This document shows, one piece after another, positions 1-14,277 of a stretch of DNA of 64,000 nucleotides. This stretch comes from Brevundimonas pondensis (GTDB taxonomy: Bacteria > Pseudomonadota > Alphaproteobacteria > Caulobacterales > Caulobacteraceae): NCBI RefSeq assembly GCF_017487345.1, contig NZ_CP062006.1:1556001-1620000 (forward strand), read 5' to 3'. Within the stretch, counting starts at the first letter, position 1. Each line of letters opens with the position of its first letter. Below the pieces are notes generated by a model. It searched no databases. It was given only the letters and a program-made list of their open reading frames with translations, and was not told the DNA's origin. The position numbers and the translations under genes were made by a program.

Positions 1-1144
1 AGGTGTCGGCACGATCGGGTATGCCGATGTCGCTGGCCGGCCGAATCTCGACCTCCTCCTCAAGCCACCTGCCGAAAGCCTTCACGCGGCCGCGGAAGAC
101 GCCAGCCGCGTCAATTTGGCCTTCGATATGGTGTTCCAACTGCTCGAGCTGGAAGCGCGAAAGCTGTCGATCCGAACCCAGAACCCAGTGTTCTCCCACG
201 AGCGGGATGGTGCGGACGGCGTAGCGGAAGTGCGGATCGACTGCGTTGAGCTCTGGACGCGTCGGATCAACGTAGGGGTCCACGAAACCGGCGAGCGTCT
301 CGTGGAATCGATCAATGGCAGCCACAGCGGACTGGTCTGCGGTCTTCCGATCCAGGCACAGGGCGGTAAGATCATAGCCAACGCCAGCCAGGATTAGGGC
401 CGTGCCCTGGGCGTCGCCGTCCGACCACACGCTCCAGCGCTCCAAATGCCTCTCGTCTAGCCAAAGGTTGCTCAGGCCCGCACGAATGGCCTCCGAGGGT
501 GCCGTGGTCCGCCCGGCCGAACCGGCCTCCCGCTCAGCCTCGTAGAGGGCATCGAATGAAGCCCAGGCGGCCGAGACCCGTGCCGCTCGGACGGGATCCG
601 TTCCGCCCGACAGATTCTCCAGCAGCTGCGACACGAGGGCGGGGAGACTCCGTAGGATCTCGACAGGATCGTCGATCTCGATAACCGGGACGCGGATGTC
701 GGCCAGCGTCAGAAAAGGATTCTCGAACAGGCGCCAATCCACCAGGGCGCCGACACAGGGTTGACCGCGCCGCTTTGACAGCAACAGCAGCACCGGGGCC
801 AGGTTTGCGCAGGACAACCGGCCGATGCCCTTTTGGCCCTGTTTGGGGCGGATCGGCAGGCCGTTGCGATCGCTAGCAGGCGTATCGCCGGAGGTCGCCT
901 TGGATTCGGTGCCGACTACTAGCCAGCGGCGGATGAACTCGTCGCGGTTCATGCCGTGGCCGTCGTCAAGGATCGTCGCCACCCCGCTACCGTCGTCGTG
1001 GATGTTCAGCTCGACGTTGCGAGCGTAGGCGTCGAATGCATTCTTCCAGAGCTCCGACACAGCGGTCGGCGCATCAGCGATCTGTTCGCGTCCAAGGTGA
1101 TCGACCGTTCGGGCGGCGGTCTGGAAGGAAATCTGATTGATCAT
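1..1144 (-). CDS. GHKL/Hsp90-like ATPase, 3' part outside window
   Basis: An open frame of 381 codons runs off the left edge, so the C-terminus is missing. The first 110 residues carry the three ATP-binding motifs of GHKL (Hsp90, MutL, histidine kinase) ATPases: an N-box ELWKNAFDAYA near residue 31, a G1 box DDGHGM near residue 59 and a glycine-rich lid KQGQKGIGRLS near residue 100. This layout matches stand-alone 'ATP-binding protein' families seen in accessory regions. The rest of the visible part, with no motif I recognise, is probably the transducer and a family-specific region. The ATG at 1144 is the first start before the N-box; no strong ribosome-binding site is visible. ATP binding is well supported. 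The biological role (defence, repair or chaperone-like) cannot be told from this sequence. Confidence 0.8.
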   Translation of the reverse strand, partial: MINQISFQTAARTVDHLGREQIADAPTAVSELWKNAFDAYARNVELNIHDDGSGVATILDDGHGMNRDEFIRRWLVVGTESKATSGDTPASDRNGLPIRPKQGQKGIGRLSCANLAPVLLLLSKRRGQPCVGALVDWRLFENPFLTLADIRVPVIEIDDPVEILRSLPALVSQLLENLSGGTDPVRAARVSAAWASFDALYEAEREAGSAGRTTAPSEAIRAGLSNLWLDERHLERWSVWSDGDAQGTALILAGVGYDLTALCLDRKTADQSAVAAIDRFHETLAGFVDPYVDPTRPELNAVDPHFRYAVRTIPLVGEHWVLGSDRQLSRFQLEQLEHHIEGQIDAAGVFRGRVKAFGRWLEEEVEIRPASDIGIPDRADT

Positions 1145-1204: not shown

Positions 1205-1656
1205 ACCTTGATTTTTCACTTCCGGCTACCCGCCCATTCTTTGCCGATGCATCGTTGCCTTGGGAGGCGTCAAATGCAACCGAAGATTTTCTGTCGTTTG
1301 CGTCTGCAACTCTCGATCCGAACATCCAGGTCCAGGTGCGCTGGCTAGGCGGTCGGCGATACTCTTGCCCTTCATCTCGGGCTATCCAAGAAACTAACCG
1401 CACGCGAATTCGCGACCCATGCGGCCCAGACACGAGCTGCTTATCGTCGTCATGTCCAATGATCTGGAGAAATGGCCCGGTTGATCGCGCCTGCCAGCGC
1501 CCTGCGCCCGCCTTAGGTCAACTGCCTCGCAGAATTCTTCGCAGTCTGCGAGCCGTAAGTCCAACGCCGATCTGAAGACCAACTTCGGTGTCGGGGCATT
1601 CGGACCTTTGGCGCGGAGAAAAATTTAGGACCGTCTCTGACATCCTGCCGCTAGCA
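1205..1656. other. Non-coding or decayed stretch
   Basis: No frame here has a recognisable protein family, a convincing start or a ribosome-binding site. The several open frames of 60 to 106 codons overlap each other on both strands and look like chance frames of GC-rich DNA. It is probably decayed DNA between the ATPase gene and the first leader repeat. Confidence 0.5.
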
Positions 1657-1732
1657 TTTAGGGGCCAAGTCGCGCCAATTCGTCTCTCCACTGCGATGTT
1701 TCGAGTGGAGTTTTTGTGCGCGGTCCGAACCT
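1657..1732 (+). repeat. Recombinase-leader repeat, copy 1 (orphan, short form)
   Basis: This is the left-most of three direct copies of the leader that precedes the recombinase at 10644. It has TTTAGGG, 17 bases, CGTCTCTC, then GATGTTT and GTGGAGTTTTTGTG, ending in a ribosome-binding site (GGAG) and a GTG at 1716. The inner hairpin of the other copies is absent. CTCCACT (1686-1692) can pair with AGTGGAG (1704-1710), and the inner CGA/TCG can pair as well, giving a compact hairpin directly followed by five T. Similarity to the recombinase gene stops shortly after the GTG, and a dctA remnant begins about 70 bases later. Confidence 0.75.
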
Positions 1733-1788
1733 GTCGTCTCTTCTACAAGTTGCGAGGCGGACTAGCCGGGCTGGCGCGCCCAACCTCA

Positions 1789-1902
1789 ATCACTGTCCTG
1801 GGCGTCGACCAGTTCCTCGGCATGGGCCGCAGCGCCACCAACGTGGTTGGCAACGCCGTAGCCGCCGGCGTCATCGCCAAATGGGAGCAAGCCCCGCACT
1901 GA
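1789..1902 (+). pseudogene. C-terminal remnant of a DctA-type dicarboxylate symporter
   Basis: The frame ending at the TGA at 1900-1902 gives about 37 residues with VDQFLGMGRSATNVVGNAVA followed by an AKWE motif. This matches the C-terminal end of DctA (C4-dicarboxylate:cation symporter), where the last transmembrane part reads like DRF-ALTN-VGN-VA-AKWE. Nothing upstream in this frame resembles the other roughly 400 residues, and the leader repeat sits immediately before it. It is therefore a 3' fragment left by a recombination or deletion. It is not a copy of the intact symporter at 48562, whose corresponding segment differs. Confidence 0.7.
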
Positions 1903-2178
1903 CGTGGCCGAACAGTCATCGGCCCTCGGTGCCGACGACGGGGCGACGCTGGCGCCGGAGGCTGCTGTCGCTGCGACCCAGCTGAGCCTTCTCATGTTTG
2001 TCCGGCGGGAAAAGCGACTCGGCCGATCTGGGCGCAACCTGGCCAGTGGCTCTCTGATATAGCCGGCGCATACCCTCGACGCCCCGCGCCCCCGGCGGGA
2101 GGGTTGCATGACGTCCTGAGGGCGAACTGCTGTGCAGAAAAGATTCCACGATCGGGCTTCCGCTGGCCAACCTGCGGC
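1903..2178. other. Intergenic, nothing recognised
   Basis: This stretch between the dctA remnant and the small minus-strand gene contains only short overlapping frames with no family resemblance, no tRNA and no clear terminator. Confidence 0.4.
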
Positions 2179-2343
2179 TTAGCGGTTGCGCCGTCTCAGC
2201 AGTCTGGCCGCCTCTTCCTTCCACAGCGCCCGGAAACGCAGCAAGATCGATCCCGGCAGGGTGGCCGCCGCACGGGAACGGCGATGGAGTTCCCTGGCTT
2301 CGGCTTCGAAACGGGCGGCCCTGTCGAGATCGGCTTCTGTCAT
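2179..2343 (-). CDS. Small protein coupled to the SRAP gene
   Basis: This 54-residue frame starts with an ATG that overlaps the TGA of the SRAP gene in an ATGA arrangement, the usual sign of translational coupling. The product (MTEADLDRAARFEAEARELH at the start) is charged and likely helical, rich in Arg, Ala and Glu, and ends in a very basic LLRRRNR tail. I recognise no family. The overlap and the compact helical composition favour a real gene. A partner or modulator role for the SRAP protein is inferred from position only. A longer in-frame start exists at 2433 but lies inside the SRAP gene and is less likely. Confidence 0.5.
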   Translation of the reverse strand: MTEADLDRAARFEAEARELHRRSRAAATLPGSILLRFRALWKEEAARLLRRRNR

Positions 2344-2912
2344 GTGGTTTCTGGCCAGACTTTCTGTACGACCAGCGTCCCGGCAGGGCAGGGCTGGAGG
2401 ATAAAATCCTCTGGGGCGCTCAGGTTCAGCCAACGGGCACCGGCGCTGGGCGGCAGCAGGACGATTTGGCGGTCATGGTAGGGCGCTACGTCCGGGCCTG
2501 GCGCAGTCGTCAACATGGCGAAGGCTCCGTTCTTGATGACACCGGCGATCCAGAACCACGGATGGCCTGCCATGGTGAAGAGCCATTTCGTTTTCTTTCC
2601 CTGCACCTTTGGCTCGGTGAACTCGTAAAAACCGTCGGCAGGGATCAGGCAGCGGATCGAGTCGCCGAAAGACCGGCCGTCGGACCGGAAATTGAAGACC
2701 GGCTTGCCCGTCGGGCTTTTCCATGCCCAGCGCGTCATAAGCAATTGCGCGCCATCGGGGCCTTGGGTGACTACGGGGGCGGCGTCGCCGATGCTGTAAT
2801 CCGCTGGCTCCAGGTTGGGCAGACCGCCCGGAAAGACGAGCGTCCGCCCCGCGTCGCGGAACGGCGCAGCGAGTTGATTGGCGGGGATGTGCAGGCGGTA
2901 GTTGTTGCACAT
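2340..2912 (-). CDS. SRAP family abasic-site-processing protein (YedK/HMCES-like)
   Basis: The 190-residue product begins Met-Cys, and Cys2, exposed after Met removal, is the family nucleophile that crosslinks to abasic sites in single-stranded DNA. The other active-site positions fit: Asn74 in FNFRSD (usually NAR-E), Glu97 in GFYEF and His146 in PYHDRQ. SRAP proteins shield abasic sites near replication forks, and bacterial members are linked to the SOS response. The NFRSD segment departs from the common NARAE form. No GTTC-N7-GTTC LexA box is visible in the 500 bases upstream. The gene lies in the first cassette-like segment, beside toxin-antitoxin genes and upstream of the mutasome. Confidence 0.9.
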   Translation of the reverse strand: MCNNYRLHIPANQLAAPFRDAGRTLVFPGGLPNLEPADYSIGDAAPVVTQGPDGAQLLMTRWAWKSPTGKPVFNFRSDGRSFGDSIRCLIPADGFYEFTEPKVQGKKTKWLFTMAGHPWFWIAGVIKNGAFAMLTTAPGPDVAPYHDRQIVLLPPSAGARWLNLSAPEDFILQPCPAGTLVVQKVWPETT

Positions 2913-3397
2913 GGGCGAATCCTCTCACGGCCTCAGTCAGTTGTGGAGTCCGGCGCCCGTGGAGCGCTTTTCGGCCTCGCGATTGCGCGGCCCATCCCTT
3001 CGTAGGGGTAGCTCCAGCAGGAGCCTGTGCCGCTAAGATCAGTCCAGCCCGCTTTCACAGTGGCGGCGGCCGCGATCGACAGAAGGGGGCCTCGCCTGAC
3101 ATCGGCCTGCCGACCAGGGCCAGGTCGTGCTCGCGCTGGGGCCCTGAGGACATGGCGCGATGTGCCACCGCCGACCTTGCAGGAGTAGCGGCCATCTAGC
3201 CCTGAAGATCAGCCGCGGCGGCACCGATCTCCAGCGAACGGTTGTCGATGTCGGCCGCGGCCAAGCTTTCCGCCAGAGCTGGGCGCGGGACGCAAGAGCG
3301 TCGCTGTCATCCTGCGTGATGAGCGTACCGGCCTTGGCGGCTCGTCGTCGTGAACGGCGCGTGACCCGAGGCTCAGCGGTTGATAATCGACCGGATA
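2913..3397. other. Intergenic region between SRAP and toxin-antitoxin genes
   Basis: About 490 bases hold no convincing gene. Reading the minus strand from about 3370 to 3190 shows peptide-like stretches (TLITQDDSDALASRAQLWRK, then DIDNRSLEIGAAAADLQG) in two different frames. This might be a frameshifted remnant, but no family is recognisable. The region should contain the divergent promoters of the SRAP gene and the toxin-antitoxin operon. Confidence 0.4.
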
Positions 3398-3410
3398 TGG
3401 ACTATGTCCA
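3398..3410. promoter_or_regulatory. Candidate operator of the MbcA-RES operon
   Basis: TGGAC-tat-GTCCA is an inverted repeat ending 19 bases before the antitoxin start. Toxin-antitoxin operons are usually autorepressed through sites placed like this. The assignment rests on position and symmetry. Confidence 0.35.
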
Positions 3411-3429
3411 GATTTGTTAGGAGATGGTC

Positions 3430-3954
3430 ATGGCGATAGGCATCGTTTCCGGTCGCGATCCGCAAGTGGAACTGCCGCGCATCGATGTGGCGCGCTTCGC
3501 TCCGGCGAACCGGCGCCGTCTGAGCGCGCCCGCGCTTCGCACATTCACCGCCATTGCCGATCTCTGGGGCCTGAACGAGGAACAGCGCCGCCTGATCCTC
3601 GGTTATCCGTCGCGCTCGACCTATCAGAGCTGGTGCAAACAGGCCCGCGAACATGGCGACATCACGCTCGACGTCGATGTGCTGACGCGCATTTCGGCGC
3701 TGCTGGGCATCCATCAGGCCCTGGGCGTCCTGTTCGCCGATGAGCATGACGGCGTCCATTGGCTGCTCCGAACGCACGATGCGGCGGTGTTCGGCGGGCA
3801 TCCGCCCATCAACTTCGTGACCAACGGGACCCAGGATGGCTTGATGACGGTGCGTCGCTTCCTCGACGCCGCGCGGGGCGGAGCCTACATGGCCCCCAAC
3901 GCCCTTGATGCGGCGTTTGACGCCTATGACGACAGCGAGATCGTCTTCAGCTGA
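3430..3954 (+). CDS. MbcA/ParS/Xre-type antitoxin (DUF2384)
   Basis: The 174-residue protein has an N-terminal Xre-like helical region (LRTFTAIADLWGLNEEQRR, then a YPSRSTYQSW segment) and a C-terminal toxin-binding part (DVLTRISALLGIHQALGVLF through a GLMTVRRFLDAARGG motif). This is the MbcA/ParS organisation. The antitoxin should bind and block the RES toxin encoded immediately downstream and repress the operon. An upstream ATG at 3424 touches the AGGAG, while the ATG at 3430 sits six bases after it, so 3430 is preferred. The stop overlaps the toxin start by one base (TGATG), as expected for coupled translation. Confidence 0.88.
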   Translation: MAIGIVSGRDPQVELPRIDVARFAPANRRRLSAPALRTFTAIADLWGLNEEQRRLILGYPSRSTYQSWCKQAREHGDITLDVDVLTRISALLGIHQALGVLFADEHDGVHWLLRTHDAAVFGGHPPINFVTNGTQDGLMTVRRFLDAARGGAYMAPNALDAAFDAYDDSEIVFS

Positions 3955-4622
3955 TGGAGAAGCTCGTCGCTGCGCCCCGTCCGGCCCACCGGCTGGTGCC
4001 ATCGCGCTTTCCGCCGATCGGCCTGTTCGACACCGTGGCGACAGCAGCCGACGCCGCGGCGGTGATGGAGCTGTCGGGCTGGACCAATGACCGCTTGGTC
4101 GCTGAACGGATCGACCGCCTGCCGCGCGATCAGTGGGTGTATGGCCGAGCCAACGCCAGCGTCGTAATGGCGTCTTTCCTCCACGTCGCGCCGGGCGGCA
4201 TGCGATTCAATGGTCCGGACCTCGGCGCCTGGTATGCGGCGGCGTCGATCGTCACTGCAGCCGCCGAGGTCGGCCATCATCTGCGCCGCGAATCCGTGGC
4301 GCGATCGGTGAAAGGAATGCGGCGGACCTATCGCAACTATACCGCCGTCTTGATCGGCGACTATCACGACATTCGTGGCCGACAGGCCGCCTTGCCCGAC
4401 GCCTACGCCTCAAACAGCTATGGGGCCGCGCAGGCGTTCGGCGAAGGCGTGCGGGCGTCCCAGGCGTCTGGGCTTCTTTACGACAGCCTGCGCCATCGCG
4501 GCGGATGCAACATCGTCGCCTATCGGCCTGTCGGCGTCACCGAAGTCGTGCAGGCGGAGCATTTCGAGATCAGCGTCGAGGCGGCGTCTCACCGGATCGA
4601 GGTTCACAAGCTGAGCGCATAA
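3954..4622 (+). CDS. RES domain NAD+-degrading toxin
   Basis: The 222-residue product matches RES toxins, which are NAD+ phosphorylases or hydrolases that deplete cellular NAD+. The residues that name the family are present: Arg84 in GMRFNGPDLGAWYAA, Glu105 in TAAAEVGHH and Ser178 in LLYDSLRHRGG. Tyr94 and the central YRNYTAVLIGDYHD segment also fit. The start overlaps the antitoxin stop, giving the standard antitoxin-first operon. The protein is slightly longer than the minimal RES domain because of an N-terminal extension of about 60 residues, also seen in MbcT-like members. Activity itself is inferred. Confidence 0.88.
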   Translation: MEKLVAAPRPAHRLVPSRFPPIGLFDTVATAADAAAVMELSGWTNDRLVAERIDRLPRDQWVYGRANASVVMASFLHVAPGGMRFNGPDLGAWYAAASIVTAAAEVGHHLRRESVARSVKGMRRTYRNYTAVLIGDYHDIRGRQAALPDAYASNSYGAAQAFGEGVRASQASGLLYDSLRHRGGCNIVAYRPVGVTEVVQAEHFEISVEAASHRIEVHKLSA

Positions 4623-4738
4623 TAACGGCAAGGCCGCCGTTGGTCGGAGCCGCACGCGCTTCGCGCATGGCGTCGCGCCGCGAATGCACGGCGACGGCGA
4701 CTGAGGGGCTGCTGTTCCGTCAGAACTCAGCCTGACCA

Positions 4739-4832
4739 TTTAGGGCTTGAGGCTCGCACATACGTCTCTCCACCGGTCGCCTGCAGGGCGATGTTTCCAG
4801 TGGAGTTTTTGTGCCCAGTCCAAAGTCTGTAC
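4739..4832 (+). repeat. Recombinase-leader repeat, copy 2 (orphan, full form)
   Basis: This is a direct copy of the leader at 10574. TTTAGGG (4739-4745), 17 bases, CGTCTCTC (4763-4770), an inner hairpin TCGCC-tgcag-GGCGA (4777-4791), then a 25-base block (4790-4814) identical to copy 3. The block contains GGAG, five T and a GTG at 4811. CTCCAC (4768-4773) is complementary to GTGGAG (4800-4805), which includes the ribosome-binding site. Resemblance to the recombinase gene continues for about 18 bases after the GTG and then stops. The dnaE2 stop codon of the opposite strand is reached at 4857. Confidence 0.8.
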
Positions 4833-4854
4833 CCGCCTCTACGTGCTATATCAC

Positions 4855-7800
4855 TCAATGGAAGTCCCGCGACCCCGGCAGGATGCGGACGTCACGCGGA
4901 TGCCGGTGCGGCGGGTGTCGCGGCGGTTGCGGGTTGGCGATGACATCGGCGCGGGCGAGCTGGATGTCGGTCTCATGGTCTTCTGACAGGCGGGACAGTT
5001 CGGCGCTGCGGTCGATGACGCGGCGGGCGACGACATGGATGACGCCTTCGGGGCTCTTCTCGACCAGGCCTTCGACCTGCATCAGGCGGGCGCTCATGAC
5101 CTCGCGCCGGTACTGGTCGAGCATCCGCGCCCAGAGGACCACGTTGGTGATGCCGGTCTCGTCCTCCAGGGTGACGAAGACAGCGTTGCCCTTGCCCGGT
5201 CGTTGACGCACCAGGACCACGCCCGCGACCCGCACCAGGGAGCCGCCGCGCTTCGCCTCGGTCTGGGCGCAGGTCAGCACGCGGTCAGCGGCGAAGACGG
5301 GGCGCAGGATGGCCATGGGGTGGGCCTTCAACGACAGGCGGGCGGTCTGATAGTCGGCGGCGACGTGCTCGCCCAGCGGCATCAGAGGCAGATGGGCGTC
5401 GGGCTCCGCGCCCAGTTCGCGGGCGCCGCGTTCGCGCGCCTCGGCGGCGGCGAACAGGGGCAGGGGGTCGTCGTCGGGCAGGCGGCGCACCGCCCACAGG
5501 GCCTCGCGCCGATCCTGTCCCAGGGAACGGAAGGCGTCGGCGTCGGCCAGTTTGCGCATGGCGGCGGCGGGCAGTTCGGCGCGCCGAGCCAGGGTTTCGA
5601 TATCGGCGAAGGGCGCCGCGGCCCGCGCCGCCGACAGGGCCGTGGCCCAATCCTCCCTGAAGCCGTCGATCTGGCGCAGGCCCAGACGCAGGGCGGGCGC
5701 GTTCGCCGGCCCCTCCAGGCTGTTGTCCCAGTCGCTGTGCGAGACGTCGATAGGGCGCACCTCGACTCCGCCGACCTCCTGCGCCTCGCGCACGATCTGG
5801 GCGGGGGCGTAGAAGCCCATGGGCTGGCTGTTCAACAGGGCGCAGGCGAAGGCCGCCGGGTGGCGATGCTTGATCCAGGAAGAGACATAGACCAGCCGGG
5901 CGAAGCTGGCGGCGTGACTTTCGGGAAAGCCGTAGGAGCCGAAACCCTTGATCTGCTCGAAGCAGCGCTGGGCGAAGGCCGGGTCATAGCCGCGCCCGAC
6001 CATCCGCCCGACCATCCGGGTTTCATAGGTGTGCAGGCTGCCGTCGCCCCGAAAAGTACCCATGGCCTTGCGCAGGCCGTTGGCCTCGCCGTCGCTGAAC
6101 TCGGCGGCGACGATAGCCAGCTTCATCGCCTGTTCCTGGAACAGGGGCACGCCGAGGGTCTTGTGCAGCACCTGTTCCAGTTCGTCGGGCGGGCCGTGAT
6201 CTGGGGAGGGCGAGGAATAGACGACCTCCTCCACACCGTTGCGGCGACGCAGATAGGGGTGAACCATGTCGCCCTGGATCGGGCCGGGGCGGACGATGGC
6301 GACCTGGATGACGAGGTCGTAGAGGCAACGGGGCCTCAGCCGAGGCAGCATGTTAATCTGGGCCCGGCTCTCGACTTGGAAGACTCCGATGGACTGGCCC
6401 CGGCACAGCATGTCGTAAACGGCCGGGTCCTCGCGCGGGAGGGTGTGCAGTTCCCAATCCTCCTTCTCATGCGCGCGGATCAGGTCGAACGCCTTGCGGA
6501 TGCAGGTCAGCATGCCGAGCGCCAGCACATCGACCTTCATCAGGCGCAGGGCGTCGATGTCGTCCTTGTCCCATTCGATGAAGGTGCGGTCCGCCATGGC
6601 GGCGTTGCCGATGGGGACCATCTCGTCCAGCCGGTCCTGGGTCAGGACGAAGCCCCCGACATGCTGGCTGAGGTGGCGGGGGAAGTTCAGCAGGCGGGAC
6701 GCCATCTCGACCGCGCGGGCGATCATCGGGTTGGCGGCGTCCAGTCCCGCCTGAACGACGTGGCGATCGCCGATCTCGGTCCCCCAACTGCCCCAGTGGC
6801 TGGAGGCCAGACGAGCGGTGACGTCTTCGGTCAGACCCAGAACCTTCCCCACCTCGCGGATGGCGCTGCGGGGGCGGAAGTGGATGACGGTGGCGGCGAT
6901 GCCGGCGCGATGGCGGCCATAGCGTTCGTAGATATGCTGGATGATCTCTTCGCGCCGCTCGTGCTCGAAATCCACGTCGATGTCGGGCGGCTCGTTTCGA
7001 TCCTCGGACAGGAAGCGTTCGAACAGCAGGTCGGACTCCATCGGGTCCACCGAGGTGATGCCCAGGACATAGCAGACCGCCGAGTTCGCGGCCGAGCCGC
7101 GCCCCTGACACAGGATGCGCTTGTTGCGCGCCACGCGGACGATGTCGAAGATAGTGAGGAAATAGGGGGCGATATCCTTGCGGGCGATAAAGGCCAGTTC
7201 CTTGTCCAGCAAGGCCTGCACCTTGTCGGGAACGCCGTCGGGGTAACGCATGGCGGCGTGACGCCCTGTAAGTTCTTCCAGCCAGGCCTGCGGCGTCCAA
7301 TCGGGCGGGACGGGCTCTTCCGGGTATTGATAGCTGAGTTCGGACAGGTCGAAGGTCGCGCGCGACAGGAAGGCGGTCGTCTCGCCTATGGCTTCGGGCG
7401 CATCCCGGAACAAACGGGCCATTTCGTCCACGGGCTTCAGCCAGCGTTCGGCGTTGGCCTCCAGCCGGCGGCCGGCGGTTTCGATGGTCACGCCCTCGCG
7501 GATACAGGTCAGGACGTCCTGCAGGTCGCGGTCATCGGGGGCGGCGTAGAGGACATCGTTGAGCGCCAGCAGGGGAACCTCCACCCGCTCGGCCATGGCC
7601 TTGAGCCGCGCCAGCCGGCGCCGGTCGTCGCCGCGCCTGTGCAGGGCGGCGCCCAGCCAGACTGCGCCCGGCGCCGCTTCTTTCATGCGGGCCAGAATCG
7701 CTTCCAGCCCGGTCAGCCGGTCCGGCGGGACAAGTATCAGCAGCAGGCCTTCGGGATCGGCCAGCAGGTCGCGCAGGCCGATCTCGCACTCGCCCTTCTT

Positions 7801-8244
7801 CGCCCGGCGGTTGCCTAGGGTCAGCAAGCGCGTCAGTCGGCCCCAACCCGCCCGCGTCTCCGGATAGGCGATGACGTCGGGCGTTCCTTCGTTGAAGACC
7901 AGCTGCGCCCCGGTCAGCAGGCGGAAGCCCGCCGCACGACGCTTCACCTCTTCGGAGAGGACCGGGTCGTTCAGCGGGTTCTCGATGAAGGCGATCTCGC
8001 CGGGACTGCCGCCGTCGCGCACCCTGTCCGGCGGGGCCAGACCCTCGATGCGAATCTCCTTCAGCGCGCTCCAGGCGCGCACCACGCCCGCCACGGTGTT
8101 GCGGTCGGCCAGCCCCAGCCCGGCGTGGCCGCGCAGGATCGCCGTCAGCACCAGGTCCTTGGGGTGCGAGGCGCCGCGCAGGAAGGAGAAGTTGCTGGCC
8201 GTCGCCAGCTCGGCGTAGGCGCCGCACGGGTCGAGCCTCCTCAT
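4855..8244 (-). CDS. dnaE2: Error-prone DNA polymerase DnaE2 (ImuC)
   Basis: The 1129-residue protein is a C-family polymerase of the DnaE2/ImuC type. The N-terminal PHP domain starts at YAELATASNFSFLRGASHP, the catalytic core has RGSAANSAVCYVLGIT and PPDIDVDFEHERREE, and a C-terminal OB-fold part ends in the characteristic HPRDVRILPGSRDFH. It performs translesion synthesis with ImuB at damage. The frame is open further upstream, but the ATG at 8244 overlaps the imuB stop (ATGA) and immediately precedes the conserved PHP start, so it is preferred. It is the last gene of imuA-imuB-dnaE2 and should be LexA-controlled through the box at imuA. Length fits the family. Confidence 0.96.
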   Translation of the reverse strand: MRRLDPCGAYAELATASNFSFLRGASHPKDLVLTAILRGHAGLGLADRNTVAGVVRAWSALKEIRIEGLAPPDRVRDGGSPGEIAFIENPLNDPVLSEEVKRRAAGFRLLTGAQLVFNEGTPDVIAYPETRAGWGRLTRLLTLGNRRAKKGECEIGLRDLLADPEGLLLILVPPDRLTGLEAILARMKEAAPGAVWLGAALHRRGDDRRRLARLKAMAERVEVPLLALNDVLYAAPDDRDLQDVLTCIREGVTIETAGRRLEANAERWLKPVDEMARLFRDAPEAIGETTAFLSRATFDLSELSYQYPEEPVPPDWTPQAWLEELTGRHAAMRYPDGVPDKVQALLDKELAFIARKDIAPYFLTIFDIVRVARNKRILCQGRGSAANSAVCYVLGITSVDPMESDLLFERFLSEDRNEPPDIDVDFEHERREEIIQHIYERYGRHRAGIAATVIHFRPRSAIREVGKVLGLTEDVTARLASSHWGSWGTEIGDRHVVQAGLDAANPMIARAVEMASRLLNFPRHLSQHVGGFVLTQDRLDEMVPIGNAAMADRTFIEWDKDDIDALRLMKVDVLALGMLTCIRKAFDLIRAHEKEDWELHTLPREDPAVYDMLCRGQSIGVFQVESRAQINMLPRLRPRCLYDLVIQVAIVRPGPIQGDMVHPYLRRRNGVEEVVYSSPSPDHGPPDELEQVLHKTLGVPLFQEQAMKLAIVAAEFSDGEANGLRKAMGTFRGDGSLHTYETRMVGRMVGRGYDPAFAQRCFEQIKGFGSYGFPESHAASFARLVYVSSWIKHRHPAAFACALLNSQPMGFYAPAQIVREAQEVGGVEVRPIDVSHSDWDNSLEGPANAPALRLGLRQIDGFREDWATALSAARAAAPFADIETLARRAELPAAAMRKLADADAFRSLGQDRREALWAVRRLPDDDPLPLFAAAEARERGARELGAEPDAHLPLMPLGEHVAADYQTARLSLKAHPMAILRPVFAADRVLTCAQTEAKRGGSLVRVAGVVLVRQRPGKGNAVFVTLEDETGITNVVLWARMLDQYRREVMSARLMQVEGLVEKSPEGVIHVVARRVIDRSAELSRLSEDHETDIQLARADVIANPQPPRHPPHRHPRDVRILPGSRDFH

Positions 8245-9800
8245 GCGAACAGGCCGTGGATGAACCAGCGCGGCTCGAGCGTCTCGCCATAGAGGCCTTG
8301 GCGGAACAGCCAGAAGCGACGGCCGTCCCGGTCCTCGACCCGGTAATAGTCGCGGGTGCGCTGGTTCGGGGCGCGCCACCATTCGCCGCTGATCCGCTCG
8401 GGCCCTTCGGCGCGCGTCACCTCGTGCAGGACGCGGCGCCAGCGGAACTTCAGCGGATAGCCGTCGGGGACCTCGGCCAGGGTTTCGACCGGCTGGGGCG
8501 GGTCGAACATCTGCAGGGGGCGCAGGGGCGGATCGTCGGGATCGAGGTCGGGCCAGGTCTCGTCGCCATGAAGGGCGGCGGCCGGGACCAGTCGCGCCGC
8601 ACGTTCAGGAATGTGCGAGGCGAAGGGCTCGAAGCGCAGCACGGCCTCCGGCCCCAGACGCGCGGTCAGCCGATCGACCAGACGGCTGAAGGCCTCCTCG
8701 CCGGGCATCTCGCGTTCCAGTCCCTGCTGGGTCGGCGCCAAAGCCTGGGTCCAGGGTACGGACATCCGCATCTGGTCGAAGCCGAAGCCGGGGTCCAGCG
8801 GGGCGGCCAGGGCCGCCATCCGCTCGCGGAACAACCGCAGGGTCGCGGGGGCGTCGCGGGTCGGGCGGCCGGTGCGAACGACGATGCGGCGCATCTCGCC
8901 GTCCACCCGATAGAAGCTGGCCTCGAAGGCGCGACCGCCCCGGCCCGTCTGATCCAGCCGGTCCATGGTCTCGATCAGCAGGTCGGACAGAACCCGCTCC
9001 ACGTCCTCGGGCGCCGAGATCGGCTCGAAGAAGACGCGGTCGATGATCACGGGGGCGGCCGGACGATGCGGGGTGATGCGCACGTCCTCGTCGCCCAGAA
9101 CCCGCGCCAGCCGGGTCGGGAAGTCGGCGCCGAAGCGGGCTGCCAGGGGCGCGCGAGGCCGGTCGTCCAGATCGCCCAGCCGCTTCAGGCCCAGACGGCG
9201 CAGGGCCTCGTCTTCCTTGTCCGAAAGCTCCAGGGCGGCGACCGGCAGGCGGCGCGCGGCGGCGCGGTCCTGGCCGGGTTCGAACCGGCCGCCGGGGCCG
9301 AAGCGGGCTAGGGCGCGCGCGACCTGGGGCGTGCCGGCCAGGGCGCACCGGATTTTGAGTCCGGCGCGTTCCGCCCGCGCTTGGACCGTCCGCATCAGGT
9401 CCGCTTCGCCACCGAGCAGGTGGGCGCAGCCGGTCACGTCCAGCATCAGGCCATGCGGCGGGTCCAGCGCGATCATCGGGGTGAAGCGGCCGAAATCCTC
9501 CAGCACCCGCCCCAGCAGGGCGTCGTCGAGGTCCGGTCGATGGGCGACGACGCGCAGGGCGGGGGTTCGCGCCCGTGCATCGGCCAGGGCCAGGCCGGGA
9601 GTCAGTCCCGCCCGCGCCGCCGCCGGATCGACGGCCGCCAGCCGCAGCGCGCCCTTGACCTTCTCGGCCAGGACGACGGGCGGCGTATCCTCAGGCGGCG
9701 CGTCGGCTCGCTGTTCCTGACGCCGCAGCCGGTCGCTGGGCAGCCAGGGGAACCAGACCGCCAGATAGCGGCGCGGGCGGGCGGAAGGTTCGCTGTTCAC
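8241..9800 (-). CDS. imuB: ImuB, Y-family polymerase homologue of the mutasome
   Basis: The 519-residue protein opens with YLAVWFPWLPSDRL, where active Y-family polymerases have a DMDAFF motif, so the catalytic acidic residues are replaced, as is known for ImuB. The middle carries the typical LDVTGCAHLLGGE segment and little-finger-like sequence, and the C-terminus is the long family tail. ImuB acts as a hub that links ImuA, the sliding clamp and DnaE2. Translation starts at a GTG (9800), and the conserved start of the family lies directly behind it. The first 110 bases overlap the end of imuA in another frame. The stop overlaps the dnaE2 start. Confidence 0.94.
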   Translation of the reverse strand: MNSEPSARPRRYLAVWFPWLPSDRLRRQEQRADAPPEDTPPVVLAEKVKGALRLAAVDPAAARAGLTPGLALADARARTPALRVVAHRPDLDDALLGRVLEDFGRFTPMIALDPPHGLMLDVTGCAHLLGGEADLMRTVQARAERAGLKIRCALAGTPQVARALARFGPGGRFEPGQDRAAARRLPVAALELSDKEDEALRRLGLKRLGDLDDRPRAPLAARFGADFPTRLARVLGDEDVRITPHRPAAPVIIDRVFFEPISAPEDVERVLSDLLIETMDRLDQTGRGGRAFEASFYRVDGEMRRIVVRTGRPTRDAPATLRLFRERMAALAAPLDPGFGFDQMRMSVPWTQALAPTQQGLEREMPGEEAFSRLVDRLTARLGPEAVLRFEPFASHIPERAARLVPAAALHGDETWPDLDPDDPPLRPLQMFDPPQPVETLAEVPDGYPLKFRWRRVLHEVTRAEGPERISGEWWRAPNQRTRDYYRVEDRDGRRFWLFRQGLYGETLEPRWFIHGLFA

Positions 9801-10479
9801 GATCCCACTCCATGATCCAGGTTCCGGTCGCCCCGCCGCCGCGCCGCCGCAGCAGGGTCGCGGAAAAAGACGGCCGCCCCGGCGCTCCGCCTTCCAGAGG
9901 TTCCGAAGCGCAGGACGTCACCGACCAGCGGGTCTCGGCTGCGCTGGGGCAGGGTTCGGCCGCAGCACGGACCAGAAACAGCGTCCCGCCGCCGCTCTCG
10001 GCCGCCAGAGCCAGTCGTCGGCTGGCCGTCAGGCTGAAGGCCTTGGCCTCGCCCCAGGCGCTCAACAGCACGGCGCCCACAGCGGGACTGCGCAGGGCTT
10101 CTTCGCCGACGGCCAACAGGGTCTGCACGTCGCGCGTCCGCACTAGCAACAGGTCGCGCGGCGACAAGCCCATCTCATGCAGGCCCGGCCCATGCGGCCG
10201 TCCCGCCTCCTGGGCCATCATCTCATGCAGTCCCCAGACGATGGGCCGCCCAGCCGCTGCCCGCAGCGCCATTCCCAGACCGAAGGCGTTGACCGTTACG
10301 GCGTCGGCAGGGGCGGCAGCGTAGAGGTCGTGGATCACGCCTGTGGCTAAGGGTGCGAAGGCATCGTGGCCCGCATTACGCGCAGCCGCGCTGACCCAAC
10401 GTCCGCCGGATCTCTCCAAGGCCTCAAGACGGGTCTTCAGCGTGGTCAGCGCGTCAGATCGCGAACATATGTTCTTCAT
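9691..10479 (-). CDS. imuA: ImuA, RecA-like mutasome accessory protein
   Basis: This is the first gene of the mutasome operon, encoding 262 residues with the RecA-fold-like ImuA organisation. LYAAAPADAVTVNAFGLGMA is followed by PIVWGLHEMMAQEAGRPHGPG and ends near a WIMEWDRE motif that is usually close to the family C-terminus. The last 30 or so residues, rich in Pro, Ala and Arg, overlap imuB and look like read-through to the next stop. The ATG at 10479 lies inside the LexA box, so the transcript must start very close to or at the start codon. The product aids the ImuB-DnaE2 complex in damage-induced mutagenesis. Confidence 0.9.
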   Translation of the reverse strand: MKNICSRSDALTTLKTRLEALERSGGRWVSAAARNAGHDAFAPLATGVIHDLYAAAPADAVTVNAFGLGMALRAAAGRPIVWGLHEMMAQEAGRPHGPGLHEMGLSPRDLLLVRTRDVQTLLAVGEEALRSPAVGAVLLSAWGEAKAFSLTASRRLALAAESGGGTLFLVRAAAEPCPSAAETRWSVTSCASEPLEGGAPGRPSFSATLLRRRGGGATGTWIMEWDREQRTFRPPAPLSGGLVPLAAQRPAAASGTASRRAA

Positions 10480-10485
10480 TTGTTC
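10471..10485. promoter_or_regulatory. LexA box (SOS operator) of imuA-imuB-dnaE2
   Basis: GTTC-TTCATTT-GTTC is a perfect alphaproteobacterial LexA site. It overlaps the imuA start codon, so bound LexA would block initiation directly. A perfect palindrome, GAACATATGTTC (10463-10474), overlaps its left half. Confidence 0.9.
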
Positions 10486-10573
10486 TATATGCGCCCGGCA
10501 TCCCGGGGGGAGTCAAGCGGGGCTGTCGCCAAGGTCCGCCGTCGCCACGTCCGGACGCATGATCGCATCGACG

Positions 10574-10664
10574 TTTAGGGTGAAGCCTCTTCTGAAACGT
10601 CTCTCAACCGTCGTCCGAAGACGATGTTTCCAGTGGAGTTTTTGTGCTCGATCCAAAGTTTGTA
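10574..10664 (+). repeat. Recombinase-leader repeat, copy 3 (attached to intact gene)
   Basis: This copy is the 5' leader of the recombinase gene: TTTAGGG (10574-10580), 17 bases, CGTCTCTC (10598-10605), an inner hairpin TCGTC-cgaa-GACGA (10611-10624), then the conserved block with GGAG, five T and the GTG start at 10644. CTCAAC (10603-10608) pairs with GTGGAG (10633-10638) with one mismatch. Compared with copy 2, the inner hairpin has a C-G pair changed to T-A, so pairing is kept. A 13-codon frame, MFPVEFLCSIQSL, starts at the ATG at 10624, ends at the TAG at 10663 and overlaps the recombinase start. Confidence 0.8.
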
Positions 10665-12539
10665 GACGGTTCGTCAGTTGATGCGTCCGTTCAGAGAAAA
10701 AGGGGCAGGCCGCCGCTGCCCATCGTCACCCATCCCGTCAGCTTGTGGGAAGTCCATGAAGACCCCAGGGACTTCCATGCCGCCCTGGATCTCCAGATCC
10801 GTCGGCACGGCGAGAACTCCCATCGACTGCATCGGGCTATCGTGGCCGCCGGCGGGCTGACGGATCGGACCACGCTCGCCGCCTGGCGGCGCGGCCTGAA
10901 GGTCCCACAGACGCCCGCGAGCCTAAAGGTTCTCGACATCATCGAGCATCGCTATCGGCTGGAGACCGGATATCTGCGGTCGCGGCTTCAGCGCCGACGC
11001 GCCCTGAGGGGGCTTGTTCCGCCCGAGACGCCCTATTCGGAATCGCGGCGTCTCGCCTGGCATCTGCCGGATGATTTCGATGAGAGGTCAGCCCGGGAAC
11101 AGGAGGAAATCCTGGACTGGGTACGCGCGACCATTCTGTCGGGCGGCACGGCCTATCATCGCTATCACTCGACCGTGTCGAAACATCGGTTCGCGCTCCG
11201 TTTTAACGGAAGCGGCCCGGAAGACTTGGCTGCGCCGACGCATTTGAGGGAAGAGATGGACGCCCTGCTGCGGTTCAAGTCTGCGACCCTCACCGATATC
11301 GGTTATCAGCGCTCGGGCGTGTGGGGGCCGGAAACGGCAGCGCAACGCGAGGAGCATCTGGCGCTTCTGTTCGGCGCCCTGGCCGCTCTGCCTGACGATG
11401 AAGTCAGTGGCCTGGGCGTGGCCAAGGAGGACCTGACCTTCGGGCTTCTCGTCGTGCCGTCCGTCTGGGACTGGTATGTCCAATGGCGCGAGCGCCGCCG
11501 CGGCTTCTTCACCGGTTGGGAAAGCGAGATGCTTCTGCTCGGCGCCGCCTTCTCGCGTAGTGAGACGGGGTGGATCAGGCAGAACCCGTGGTTGGCGGGG
11601 CGGCTGCGCCCGGTTCCCGGCATCATTACGCAGGAGGAAATCGACCGTATCAGCGGACATTGGGATGAAGCCTGCGAGCGGGTGCATCGCCACGCCCTGG
11701 CCAGAGCCAAGGAGATCGAACGCGTCGCTCGGGTGCATCGGGACCCCTTTGAACCGATCCTGCCCATTCTGGAGGCGACGAGTCCCGTTGGCGAGTACCG
11801 CAAGATCACTGAAGAAGTTCTACGCCGGATGCCTGATGAGAGACGCTACCCTCGGGCGGCGGCCGAAGCCGTCCGCTCATTCCTCATGCTGCGACTGGGG
11901 TTGCACCTCGGCGTCAGGCAGAAGAATCTCCGGCAACTCCTGCTGCGTCCCCGCGGAAGCCCGGCGACGCCGGAAAGGGAGCTGGAGAGCAGGCGATGCG
12001 GCGAGCTGCGCTGGAGCGATAGGGAAGGGGGCTGGGAGGTCTTTATCCCATGCGTCGCCTTTAAGAACTCAGGTTCGGCCTATTTTTCCAAACGTCCGTT
12101 CCGGCTTCTCCTTCCGGACCTGGGAGGACTGTACCGTTGGATCGACGCCTATGTGGGCCGCCATCGATCGGCCCTGCTGAATGGGTCCCGCGATCCCGGC
12201 ACCTTCTTCGTGAAGACCGTCAAGGTCTCCAGCCGCAACGCCGCCTATAATCAGAACACCTTCTACGATGCCTGGCGACAGGTGATTCAGCGCTACGGGA
12301 TCTACAACCCGTACACGCAGAAGGGCGCCATTCGAGGCTTGCTTCCTCATGGACCGCACAATGTGAGGGACGTCTTGGCCACACATGTGCTGAAGCAGAC
12401 CGGCTCCTACGAACAGGCCAGCTACGCCATTCAGGATACGCCGGCCACGGTCGCTGCCCACTACGGGCGCTTTCTCCCGCAGGATAAGGCGGCGTTGGCG
12501 GCCCAGGTCTTGAACCGCGTCTGGGACGAGGCCGCATGA
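10644..12539 (+). CDS. Large tyrosine recombinase (site-specific integrase)
   Basis: The 631-residue protein has a C-terminal tyrosine-recombinase catalytic domain: Arg425 in LGVRQKNLRQ, a candidate Lys474 in AFKNSG, the HxxR box His572-Arg575 in HNVRD and the nucleophile Tyr607 in AAHYGRF. The usual second His before the tyrosine appears replaced (IQDTPATV). The N-terminal 100 residues contain a basic RKRGRPPLP segment and an Xre-like helix pair (TDRTTLAAWRRGLKVP). The long middle part is unassigned. Translation from the GTG at 10644 uses the GGAG of the leader repeat. The gene stands alone rather than in a three-recombinase set, and sits between the mutasome and dinB-alkB. It probably mobilised the neighbouring segments, which is an inference from the repeats. 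Confidence 0.88.
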   Translation: MLDPKFVDGSSVDASVQRKRGRPPLPIVTHPVSLWEVHEDPRDFHAALDLQIRRHGENSHRLHRAIVAAGGLTDRTTLAAWRRGLKVPQTPASLKVLDIIEHRYRLETGYLRSRLQRRRALRGLVPPETPYSESRRLAWHLPDDFDERSAREQEEILDWVRATILSGGTAYHRYHSTVSKHRFALRFNGSGPEDLAAPTHLREEMDALLRFKSATLTDIGYQRSGVWGPETAAQREEHLALLFGALAALPDDEVSGLGVAKEDLTFGLLVVPSVWDWYVQWRERRRGFFTGWESEMLLLGAAFSRSETGWIRQNPWLAGRLRPVPGIITQEEIDRISGHWDEACERVHRHALARAKEIERVARVHRDPFEPILPILEATSPVGEYRKITEEVLRRMPDERRYPRAAAEAVRSFLMLRLGLHLGVRQKNLRQLLLRPRGSPATPERELESRRCGELRWSDREGGWEVFIPCVAFKNSGSAYFSKRPFRLLLPDLGGLYRWIDAYVGRHRSALLNGSRDPGTFFVKTVKVSSRNAAYNQNTFYDAWRQVIQRYGIYNPYTQKGAIRGLLPHGPHNVRDVLATHVLKQTGSYEQASYAIQDTPATVAAHYGRFLPQDKAALAAQVLNRVWDEAA

Positions 12540-12625: not shown

Positions 12626-13702
12626 ATGGACGTAGCTGCGCCCCGCAAGATCATCCATGTGGACATGGACGCCTTTTTCGCCTCGGTGGAGCAGAGGGAC
12701 GACCCCGCGCTGCGTGGTCGGCCCGTCGCCGTCGGCCATGCCGCCTCGCGCGGCGTGGTCGCCGCCGCCAGCTATGAGGCACGTCGTTTCGGGGTACGCT
12801 CGGCCATGCCTTCGAGCACGGCCTTGCGCAAATGCCCCGAGCTGATCTTCACGCCGCCGCGCTTCGAGGTTTATCGGGCCGTTTCCGCGCAGATCCACGT
12901 CATCTTCGCCGACTATACGCACCTGATGGAACCGCTCTCCCTGGATGAAGCCTATCTCGACGTCACGGCCAACATCCGGGGACTGCCGACAGCGTCCGCG
13001 ACGGCCGAGGAGATCCGGTCAAGAATTCTCCGGGAGACCGGCCTGACGGCGTCTGCCGGCGTGTCCTACAACAAGTTTCTGGCCAAGCTGGCTTCGGACC
13101 AGCGCAAACCCAACGGCCAGTTCGTGGTTGCGCCGGGGCGGGGAGAAGCCTTCGTGGAGGCTCTGCCGGTCAAACGCTTTCATGGCGTCGGGCCGGTTAC
13201 GGCGGCAAAAATGAACAGGCTAGGCATAGAGACCGGCGCGGACCTCAAGCGTCAGTCCCTGGCCTTCCTTCAGCATCATTTCGGCAAGTCGGGCGCCTGG
13301 TATTATGGCGTAGCGCGGGGAGAGGATCATCGTCCCGTCAATCCGAACCGCGAACGCAAGTCCAGCGGGTCGGAAACAACCTTCGCCGGCGACCTGGTCG
13401 ATCCCGCGGCGATCGAGGCCGGGCTGGACGAGATGGCGGACGATGTCTGGGCCTGGTGCGAAAAGGCCGGGTCGCTCGGCCGGACCGTCACGGTGAAGGT
13501 CAAATGGGCGGACTTCCAGCAATCGACCCGGAGCCGGTCCTTCAAGGAGCCGGTCACCTCGAAAGCGCGGTTGCGTGAGATCGCGCGCCTTCTGGTGCGA
13601 TCCCTCTATCCGCCGACAAGAGGCGTGCGGCTTGTCGGCGTGACCTTGTCCAATCTGGAGAAGGCCTCGCCTAAGGCGGCTCCGGGCGAGCTGGCGTTGT
13701 GA
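12626..13702 (+). CDS. dinB: DNA polymerase IV (DinB)
   Basis: The 358-residue Y-family polymerase has intact catalytic acids: Asp13 and Asp15 in HVDMDAFFASVEQ, and Asp107 with Glu108 in SLDEAYLDV. The steric-gate region, the thumb motif FHGVGPVTAAKMNRLGI and a little-finger domain follow. It extends primers across damaged bases. The C-terminus ends at GELAL with no obvious beta-clamp motif of the usual type. Its own LexA box lies directly upstream, and alkB follows with a four-base overlap, so the two form an SOS operon independent of the mutasome promoter. Confidence 0.96.
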   Translation: MDVAAPRKIIHVDMDAFFASVEQRDDPALRGRPVAVGHAASRGVVAAASYEARRFGVRSAMPSSTALRKCPELIFTPPRFEVYRAVSAQIHVIFADYTHLMEPLSLDEAYLDVTANIRGLPTASATAEEIRSRILRETGLTASAGVSYNKFLAKLASDQRKPNGQFVVAPGRGEAFVEALPVKRFHGVGPVTAAKMNRLGIETGADLKRQSLAFLQHHFGKSGAWYYGVARGEDHRPVNPNRERKSSGSETTFAGDLVDPAAIEAGLDEMADDVWAWCEKAGSLGRTVTVKVKWADFQQSTRSRSFKEPVTSKARLREIARLLVRSLYPPTRGVRLVGVTLSNLEKASPKAAPGELAL

Positions 13703-14277
13703 CGGCGATGTTCCAGGCCGACCTGTTCGGTCAAGCCCCCGGGCCCGTCGTTCCGTTCGGCTTCGACTACTGGCCGGATACCCTGTCGGCACCTGAGCAG
13801 GCGGCGGTGGTAGAGCAACTGCAGCGGCTGAACTTCAGGCCCTATGAGCACATGGGCTACCAGGGCTTCCGGCGGATCGCCGCCTTCGGGCGCCGCTATA
13901 ATCCGGAGCGGCGCGAGCTGGAGACGACCGAGCCCTGGCCGGACTTCCTGCAGCATCTGTTACGACGTCTGGCCGGACGGCTGGGTCTTGATGACGGGCC
14001 TTTCGTCCAAGCCCTCGTCAACGAATATGCGCCTGGTGCGGGGATCGGCTGGCATCGCGACCGGCCGGTCTATGGGGAGATCATCGGCGTCTCCTTTATC
14101 GCGCCCTGCGTCATGCGCTTTCGCCGCAAGGGGACGGCCCAGTGGCGTCGCGCCGGCGCGACGCTGGATCCGGGCTCGGTCTATCGGCTTTCCGGCGAGG
14201 CGCGGCGGGATTGGCAGCATTCGATCTCGCCGATGACAGCCCTGCGCTACTCCATTACTTTCAGAACGCTATCCTGA
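13699..14277 (+). CDS. alkB: AlkB-type 2-oxoglutarate/Fe(II) DNA dealkylase
   Basis: The 192-residue protein carries the AlkB dioxygenase motifs: His119 and Asp121 in GIGWHRDRPVYG, His174 in DWQHSI as the distal iron ligand, and Arg183 in RYSITFR for 2-oxoglutarate. The NEYAPGAGIGWH stretch is typical of the family. It reverses alkyl damage such as 1-methyladenine and 3-methylcytosine. The GTG start at 13699 overlaps the dinB stop (GTGA); an ATG at 13708 is an alternative. Cotranscription with dinB from a LexA box makes it SOS-inducible here, whereas E. coli alkB belongs to the Ada response. Confidence 0.93.
   Translation: MTAMFQADLFGQAPGPVVPFGFDYWPDTLSAPEQAAVVEQLQRLNFRPYEHMGYQGFRRIAAFGRRYNPERRELETTEPWPDFLQHLLRRLAGRLGLDDGPFVQALVNEYAPGAGIGWHRDRPVYGEIIGVSFIAPCVMRFRRKGTAQWRRAGATLDPGSVYRLSGEARRDWQHSISPMTALRYSITFRTLS

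What the first reader, a model, noticed from the sequence alone, without database searches (positions are those of the whole stretch)
1657..10664. Recombinase leader repeated three times, delimiting DNA-damage cassettes
A leader of 76 to 94 bases occurs at 1657, 4739 and 10574 in the same orientation. TTTAGGG-N17-CGTCTCTC is kept in all three, and a 25-base block ending at the GTG is identical in copies 2 and 3 with one change in copy 1. Only copy 3 continues into a full tyrosine recombinase gene; in copies 1 and 2 similarity stops within about 20 bases of the start codon. The intervals hold SRAP plus MbcA/RES (3.1 kb) and imuA-imuB-dnaE2 (5.8 kb), with dinB-alkB after the recombinase. One reading is that the leader is the recombination site, so cassettes insert at or are captured by the 5' end of the recombinase gene, giving an integron-like array of damage-tolerance genes. 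Gene decay after duplication is an alternative.
Basis: partly seen in the sequence, partly recalled or inferred. Interest (0 to 1): 0.85.

Follow-up and report, generated by a model that had tools for sequence, protein, structure and literature searches.

The report
Cassette array inside a recombinase gene
In some Brevundimonas bacteria the start of an unusual DNA-recombinase gene is repeated in a row, and the extra copies end at the same base and are joined to different repair, toxin-antitoxin or anti-phage genes, as if the recombinase collects gene cassettes at its own front end; this would be a new, so far unproven, way to stockpile defence genes.

Summary
The repeats are real. Exact TTTAGGG-N17-CGTCTCTC occurs four times in the genome: the three window copies plus one before a second full recombinase. 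Of 131 genus genomes, 7 hold 15 copies; each of the 7 orphans lies upstream of a recombinase-linked copy on the same strand. The leader reads as a FecI-like promoter, a hairpin holding the ribosome-binding site, and the first codons of the recombinase. Similarity stops at one seam, 29 nt from the G of GTG in 13 of 15 copies: C^TAC in six orphans, C^G[C/T/A]C in the nine others. Left and right sides are mixed: one leader type joins the recombinase in three genomes, imuABC in a fourth, an AraC cargo in a fifth. B. guildfordensis and B. naejangsanensis match over 8.6 kb up to this base, then one continues into recombinase, the other into imuABC plus a second leader. Other cargo: Hachiman, SRAP with Xre/RES. 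The catalytic domain models as Cre/Xer-like. An integron-like array whose site lies inside the recombinase gene is my best reading (0.5). Recombinase action at the seam is inferred; homologous recombination between repeats remains possible, and rhizobial relatives mostly show truncation at varied points.

The parts
1627..1743 (+). Leader copy 1 (orphan): promoter-like 1657-1688, hairpin arms 1686-1692/1704-1710, GTG 1716, seam C^TAC at 1743/1744
   Evidence: (CM R1, 97.4 bits; the model was built from this copy too)
1744..4839 (.). Interval 1 (seam to seam): fragment resembling the DctA C-terminus (identification recalled), SRAP, Xre/MbcA-type antitoxin, RES toxin, leader copy 2 at its right end
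2340..2912 (-). SRAP (SOS response-associated peptidase)
   Evidence: PF02586 E 3.3e-15
3424..3954 (+). Xre/MbcA/ParS-type antitoxin
   Evidence: PF20432, PF09722
3954..4622 (+). RES-domain protein, toxin by analogy
   Evidence: PF08808 E 5.6e-25
4709..4839 (+). Leader copy 2 (orphan): promoter-like 4739-4770, GTG 4811, seam C^TAC at 4839/4840
   Evidence: (126.7 bits)
4840..10672 (.). Interval 2 (seam to seam): 14 nt, then dnaE2-imuB-imuA with upstream region (homology to the genome's other imu locus 4854-10523 only), then leader copy 3
4855..8382 (-). DnaE2-type polymerase ORF (true start probably further in)
8241..9800 (-). ImuB-type Y-family protein
   Evidence: second copy of the genome 94% identical
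9691..10479 (-). ImuA-like ORF
   Evidence: NF033429 E 3e-11, below cut-off
10544..10672 (+). Leader copy 3 (recombinase-linked): promoter-like 10574-10605, GTG 10644, seam C^GTC at 10672/10673
   Evidence: (121.7 bits)
10644..12539 (+). Divergent tyrosine recombinase, 631 aa: N-terminal part like HTH regulators, C-terminal Cre/Xer-like domain; R425, K474, H572, R575, Y607 invariant in 15 homologues (catalytic roles assigned from recall)
12626..13702 (+). DinB-type polymerase, right neighbour of the recombinase in several genomes
13699..14277 (+). AlkB-type 2OG-Fe(II) oxygenase
2..1144 (-). Start of a HATPase gene (HEF_HK domain further on) with a Response_reg_2 partner left of the window; left of leader 1; possibly older cargo

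Best explanation
The window holds a cassette array whose recombination site lies inside the recombinase gene. The unit (~130-150 nt) comprises a FecI-like promoter, a 5'-UTR hairpin and the first nine codons, ending at a seam (C^). A cassette is [TAC...cargo...leader]. Inserting a cassette at the seam of the recombinase-linked leader leaves the old leader as an orphan facing the cargo and gives the recombinase gene a new promoter and start from the cassette's own leader, so the gene is rebuilt at each insertion instead of destroyed. Shown: the repeats, the common seam, the mix-and-match of sides, the variable cargo, a filled/unfilled pair, and a tyrosine-recombinase-like fold prediction. Inferred: that the adjacent recombinase catalyses exchange at the seam, that cassettes pass through a free circle, and that a FecI-type sigma factor controls expression.
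For: 15 leader copies in 7 of 131 genus genomes, all on the strand of the recombinase, each of the 7 orphans 5' of a recombinase-linked copy. Distance GTG-to-seam 29 nt in 13 of 15 (28 in c1, 30 in G216_o); last left base C in 15 of 15; right side TAC in 6 orphans, G[C/T/A]C in the other 9. Mean identity over the 65 pairs of different right-side class is 0.39-0.86 in 4-nt blocks left of the seam and 0.21-0.33 from +12 on. Mix-and-match (types assigned by eye): leader type A joins recombinase (G102, G216, G198), imuABC (G215) and an AraC cargo (G165); imuABC is joined by leader c2 and by type A; TACAAGTTG cargo starts by c1 and by type B. G198 and G215 have no mismatch over the 300 nt left of the seam and match at 9 of 40 to its right (99.65% over 8.6 kb). 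G102_o and G198_o match at 29 of 30 left, 13 of 30 right. G215's imuABC is mostly 91-100% identical to that of the window while its recombinase is nearer to that of G102 in every block. The genome holds another imuABC elsewhere. Orphans keep the columns invariant in recombinase-linked copies (e.g. c1 vs G198_o 1/44 vs 17/43 differences, p 1e-5). Hachiman cargo. Foldseek of the catalytic-domain model: Cre prob 1.00 (E 0.012), XerH 0.99 (E 0.018).
Against: The right end of the moved imuABC segment is not pinned to a seam: G215/G000 identity falls to 74-80% already inside imuA, as homologous recombination would give. Junctions are few (three or four independent right sides). I recognised no inverted-repeat core around the seam (by eye; no tool test). 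The leftmost cargo has no leader to its left. Seven more diverged Brevundimonas recombinase neighbourhoods of 16-20 kb show no second leader. In Rhizobiaceae plasmids truncated copies break at many points (+66, +84, +151, +182, +387, +453 to +461 in three loci, +597 nt). Of the six genomes with more than one copy, the array's recombinase is a remnant in G165 and G198 and lacks about 48 residues in G215. Structure confidence is modest (mean pLDDT 61.9; no Foldseek match at E <= 0.001).
Confidence: 0.5

Rival explanations
1. A plastic hotspot reshuffled by ordinary homologous recombination: the leaders are relics of duplicated recombinase genes, and RecA-type recombination between these ~150-bp repeats, and between recombinase genes, swaps the DNA between them.
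For: Mosaic identity of the G215 array, imuA differing more than dnaE2, segments A, B and dinB-alkB in different orders in relatives, recombinase fragments in many genomes.
Against: Homologous crossovers should fall anywhere in the leader, yet the left-hand switch is at the same base in different joins; six orphans share TAC right of it, which does not stand at that place in the imu flanks of the eight other loci compared.
Confidence: 0.27
2. Gene decay: each orphan is a duplicated recombinase gene that lost all but its 5' end.
For: G102_o runs on into recombinase sequence and carries changes in the blocks; recombinase remnants are common in the genus and on rhizobial plasmids with varied break points.
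Against: Six Brevundimonas orphans break at one base; orphan blocks stay conserved while their spacers diverge (part of that may predate the orphans); 2 of 6 orphans have shifted frame yet keep the blocks.
Confidence: 0.13
3. The orphan leaders are regulatory elements in their own right (FecI-type promoter plus hairpin and T-run producing a short RNA), spread with neighbouring genes.
For: TTAGGG-N17-CGTCTCT also precedes two TonB-receptor genes beside FecR and an ECF sigma factor; hairpin kept in the alignment, 5 of 15 predicted pairs with a change on both sides.
Against: The nearest complete genes downstream of orphans 1 and 2 in the window face the other way; the sharp seam and right-side TAC are not explained.
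Confidence: 0.1

Closest known systems
Integrons (IntI / attI / attC arrays; features recalled)
   Same: Tandem cargo units bounded by same-orientation repeats beside a tyrosine recombinase; variable, stress- and defence-related cargo.
   Different: The recombinase matches no family in the libraries tried; the repeat is the recombinase's own promoter and 5' codons; cargo lies upstream of the gene; units are about 3-8 kb (50 kb between copies in G198) with several genes.
Archaeal 'suicidal' integrases (SSV1 type; PMC8371274, passages seen)
   Same: Recombination target within the integrase's own gene.
   Different: [quoted passage not shown] here bacterial, and the gene is rebuilt rather than split, because each unit brings a new 5' end. 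Site use is inferred here.
Accretion of CIMEs/ICEs and tandem ssrA islands (PMC7563491, PMC3146451, search listing only; features recalled)
   Same: Cargo without its own recombinase stacked between repeated attachment sites next to an integrase.
   Different: The target is the recombinase gene's 5' end, not a tRNA, tmRNA or housekeeping gene. Conjugation genes were not searched for.
GInts (PMC5385486, title and abstract start seen)
   Same: Defined by integrases of the tyrosine recombinase family.
   Different: Four essential genes according to the title; here a single recombinase.

Membership tests
Tyrosine recombinase superfamily | Catalytic fold and R-K-H-R-Y residues | tested here: met
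   Invariant R425, K474, H572, R575, Y607 in 15 homologues (catalytic roles assigned from recall); Foldseek top three Cre (prob 1.00), XerH (0.99), an MRSA integrase (0.66), E 0.012-0.33, none at 0.001. Sequence profiles weak: Phage_integrase E 0.015 for the C58 homologue, below cut-off, none for P0001.
Integron | Integron-integrase family member | tested here: not met
   No NCBIfam match at E <= 0.1 (that this library holds an integron-integrase model is recalled), no Pfam match for P0001.
Integron | Array of variable cargo between same-orientation sites | tested here: met
Integron | attC-type folded single-strand site | not tested
   A hairpin exists in the leader but attC boxes were not examined.
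Integron | Excision as circles and recombinase-dependent insertion | not testable with these tools
   Needs reads or bench work.
Suicidal (SSV1-type) integrase | Attachment site within the integrase gene | tested here: inconclusive
   Seam at codon 10 of the gene; not shown to be an attachment site.
Suicidal (SSV1-type) integrase | Integration splits the gene | tested here: not met
   The gene beside the array is one full-length open frame in G000, G102 and G216.
ECF (FecI-type) promoter | Motif shared with fecA-like promoters beside fecI-fecR | tested here: inconclusive
   Two sites with 2 mismatches lie directly upstream of TonB receptors beside FecR and ECF sigma; no expression data.

The most novel reading that the evidence does not exclude
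A bacterial tyrosine recombinase uses a site inside its own 5' end to stack repair, toxin-antitoxin and anti-phage cassettes; each cassette brings a spare promoter and start for the recombinase, so every insertion re-founds the enzyme's gene and may reset its control.
Probability: 0.42. Interest if true: 0.86.

Novelty: new variant of a known kind. Interest (0 to 1): 0.68.

Why it matters
If the seam is a recombination site, this is a further way, beside integrons and defence-island hotspots, to gather defence and DNA-damage genes in one place, run by a recombinase family that passed no cut-off in Pfam, NCBIfam or PHROGs and is found in 173 of 72,556 plasmid records, mostly Rhizobiaceae, often beside toxin-antitoxin or defence-like genes in the loci I opened. 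It would also be a bacterial case of a site inside the integrase gene that does not kill the gene. Strains with an intact recombinase and an array make it directly testable.

Tried and rejected
Chance: rejected, four exact 15-base matches in the genome and none with one mismatch. Plain gene decay: rejected for six Brevundimonas orphans (one seam), kept for G102_o and for most rhizobial truncations. I first read the A. fabrum pair (C58: Fic-leader-recombinase; 1D132: Fic-leader-TA pair-leader-recombinase) as a second site-specific array, but rhizobial break points vary, so it counts as suggestive only. Leader arrays of seven diverged Brevundimonas recombinase loci (L055-L061): none found. Leader of G102 on plasmids: no match; recombinase in phages: none; in IMG/VR contigs: one relative, used only in an alignment. 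Model in which the recombinase was excised and TAC is the sequence once right of it: no copy of the TACAAGTTG end found right of a recombinase in the loci scanned, nor elsewhere in the own genome. A search of the family of G559 for the rhizobial leader hit a family without any match and shows nothing. The first structure model matched mainly HTH proteins, weakly. Literature: the rows shown (15 of 82 papers; 10 of 21; 10 of 378; 8 of 11; 3 of 3; 6 of 29; 6 of 7) describe no such array as far as titles and abstract starts tell; of the papers only passages of PMC8371274 were read.
Full report
OBSERVATION. The three window copies are exact at TTTAGGG-N17-CGTCTCTC (1657, 4739, 10574) and share the 25-base block before GTG. 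The genome (G000, one contig of 3.55 Mb) holds a fourth exact copy at 610557, before a second full recombinase 90% identical to the first. No site with one mismatch exists; two sites have two mismatches; at up to three mismatches the count equals that of the reversed control pattern, 34 and 34.

WHAT THE LEADER IS. The two sites with two mismatches stand directly in front of TonB-dependent receptor genes (STN, plug, barrel) beside FecR and an ECF sigma factor, so the motif reads as a FecI-type promoter; this is inference from position. Below it lies a hairpin whose outer stem pairs CTCCAC with the GTGGAG that precedes the start codon; a C-G to U-A change keeps it in the identical leader of G198 and G215, and inner-stem pairs vary on both sides in one to three sequences. 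TTTTT and GTG follow. Single-strand folding is only mildly better than shuffles in the four folded (z -0.65 to -2.06), and copy 3 does not form the outer stem in its best fold. Several more distant recombinase genes (about 60-71% identical) keep a similar layout in other letters, by eye.

HOW MANY AND WHERE. In 199 family genomes the block is found in 4, all in the genus, the own one included. The covariance model R1, built from the 15 copies of alignment A1, recovers these 15 in 7 of 131 genus genomes and no further one at E 0.01, under strict filters. Seven are orphans, eight begin a recombinase gene (some only remnants). All orphans lie 5' of a recombinase-linked copy on the same strand and contig: G000 (3.1 and 5.8 kb steps), G215 (5.8 kb), G102 (2.9 kb), G216 (4.1 kb), G165 (8.2 kb), G198 (50 kb). 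G207 has a single copy. The pattern scan of 84,980 named genomes returned 77 stretches; 5 of them, all Brevundimonas, carry the full leader; records near the window's own genome may be left out there.

THE SEAM. Anchored at GTG, the copies part at one base: 29 nt from the G in 13 of 15, 28 in c1, 30 in G216_o. Left of it is C in all 15; right of it TAC in six orphans, G[C/T/A]C in eight recombinase-linked copies and in G102_o, which is a decayed recombinase start. Over the 65 cross-class pairs identity is 0.39-0.86 in 4-nt blocks left of the seam, 0.51 at +0 to +3, 0.22 at +4 to +7, 0.45 at +8 to +11, and 0.21-0.33 from +12 on.

MIX AND MATCH. Leader type A (types by eye) stands before the recombinase in G102, G216 and G198, before imuABC in G215, and before an AraC gene and a 2168-aa repeat protein in G165. 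imuABC is preceded by leader c2 in the window and by type A in G215. The right side TACAAGTTG occurs behind c1 and behind type B. G198 and G215 are 99.65% identical for 8.6 kb up to the seam, without mismatch over the last 300 nt, then share 9 of 40 letters: G198 continues into a recombinase remnant and dinB-alkB, G215 into imuABC, a second leader, recombinase and dinB-alkB. G102_o and G198_o agree at 29 of 30 left and 13 of 30 right; G102_o and G216_o, whose spacing differs by one base, agree at only 11 of 30 left and 14 of 30 right without gaps.

CARGO. Window: SRAP, Xre/RES and imuABC. The window's imuABC is a second copy: the genome has another at 1682664, and homology between the two covers 4854-10523 only, i.e. 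the genes with their upstream region, starting 14 nt after the seam. G215's only imuB match is the array copy. G216: HamA and HamB of Hachiman (E 1.5e-101 and 8.2e-292). G102: a 341-aa protein and an MFS-like transporter, the latter named by eye. Relatives G203 and G127, and a second locus of G165, show dinB-alkB without recombinase or leader beside it.

TRANSFER. In G215 the imuABC part is mostly 91-100% identical to the window's (86-88% in two blocks), whereas in every recombinase block G215 is nearer to G102 (82-100%) than to the window's gene (86% or less); yet identity to the window already falls to 74-80% inside imuA and stays near 80% through leader and recombinase. The left end of the moved piece is therefore at the seam within about a base; its right end is not resolved and looks like homologous exchange.

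CONSTRAINT ON ORPHANS. Of 51 columns invariant in eight recombinase-linked copies, the six orphans differ at 0 to 2 (8 in c1, 7 of them gaps), G102_o at 4; the 53 other columns differ widely (14 of 15 orphan pairs p < 0.02, one p 0.16). Part of this constraint may predate the orphans. Two of six orphans have shifted frame (c1, G216_o).

THE ENZYME. P0001 has no match in Pfam, NCBIfam, PHROGs or PADLOC at the limits used, nor in the PDB by sequence, alone or as profile A2. A model of residues 380-631 (mean pLDDT 61.9, pTM 0.58) has Cre, XerH and an MRSA integrase as its top three Foldseek matches, none at E 0.001; the full-length model (mean pLDDT 64.3) gave weak matches, mainly HTH regulators. 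Homologues: 26 of 131 genus genomes, many fragmentary; 4 of 385 class genomes, the own one included; 173 plasmid records, mostly Rhizobiaceae; no phage.

RHIZOBIAL COMPARISON. In 20 plasmid loci from 19 records the gene often follows a toxin-antitoxin-like gene (Fic, HipA, RelE/B, PIN). A. fabrum 1D132 has an orphan leader, a DNA-binding/PIN pair, then leader and gene, where C58 has leader and gene directly, with 95.3% identity up to the join. But truncated copies end at many points, so these are mostly decay. Six loci share the same right end, +2445 nt from ATG.

CONCLUSION. The anatomy is best read as an integron-like, defence- and repair-gene array with its seam inside the recombinase gene (0.5). 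Shared seam, mixed sides and cargo are shown; catalysis by the recombinase, circles and promoter control are inferred.

Noticed in passing
window 1786-1902: A fragment resembling the C-terminal end of a DctA-type transporter (identification recalled) follows the seam of leader 1, suggesting cargo that begins with a truncated chromosomal gene.
   Followed up: no
window 2-1144 and L006:2252-6983; L049:4318-9089: HATPase with HEF_HK domain plus Response_reg_2 protein, left of the first leader in G000; a gene pair with 68-76% DNA similarity in pieces lies left of the first leader of G102 in the opposite orientation. Maybe an older cassette of a conflict system.
   Followed up: partly
L052:8780-8840: GGTTCCTCTACAAGTTGCG, like the 3' end of a leader with its TAC side, without the rest of the leader, left of the G216 orphan: possible remnant of an older seam.
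   Followed up: partly
G000:C1:1305357-1306286 (L046): A third recombinase fragment (residues 292-601, 89%) in the same genome.
   Followed up: partly
L190, L193, L194, L195, L197, L181: In six Rhizobiaceae plasmid loci homology to the C58 recombinase unit ends at the same point, about 90 nt after its stop codon, though surroundings differ: a defined right end of a mobile unit?
   Followed up: no
L043 and L044: Two paralogous FecI-FecR-TonB-receptor operons lie about 9-17 kb from the two full recombinase genes of G000; coincidence or shared control is open.
   Followed up: partly
L047:13417-15458: Tandem repeats with a 255-nt step inside the 2168-aa surface-protein-like cargo of G165.
   Followed up: no
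L148, L147, L051: Segments A, B and dinB-alkB occur in different orders in G127, G203 and G198, so the dinB-alkB neighbourhood is itself reshuffled.
   Followed up: partly
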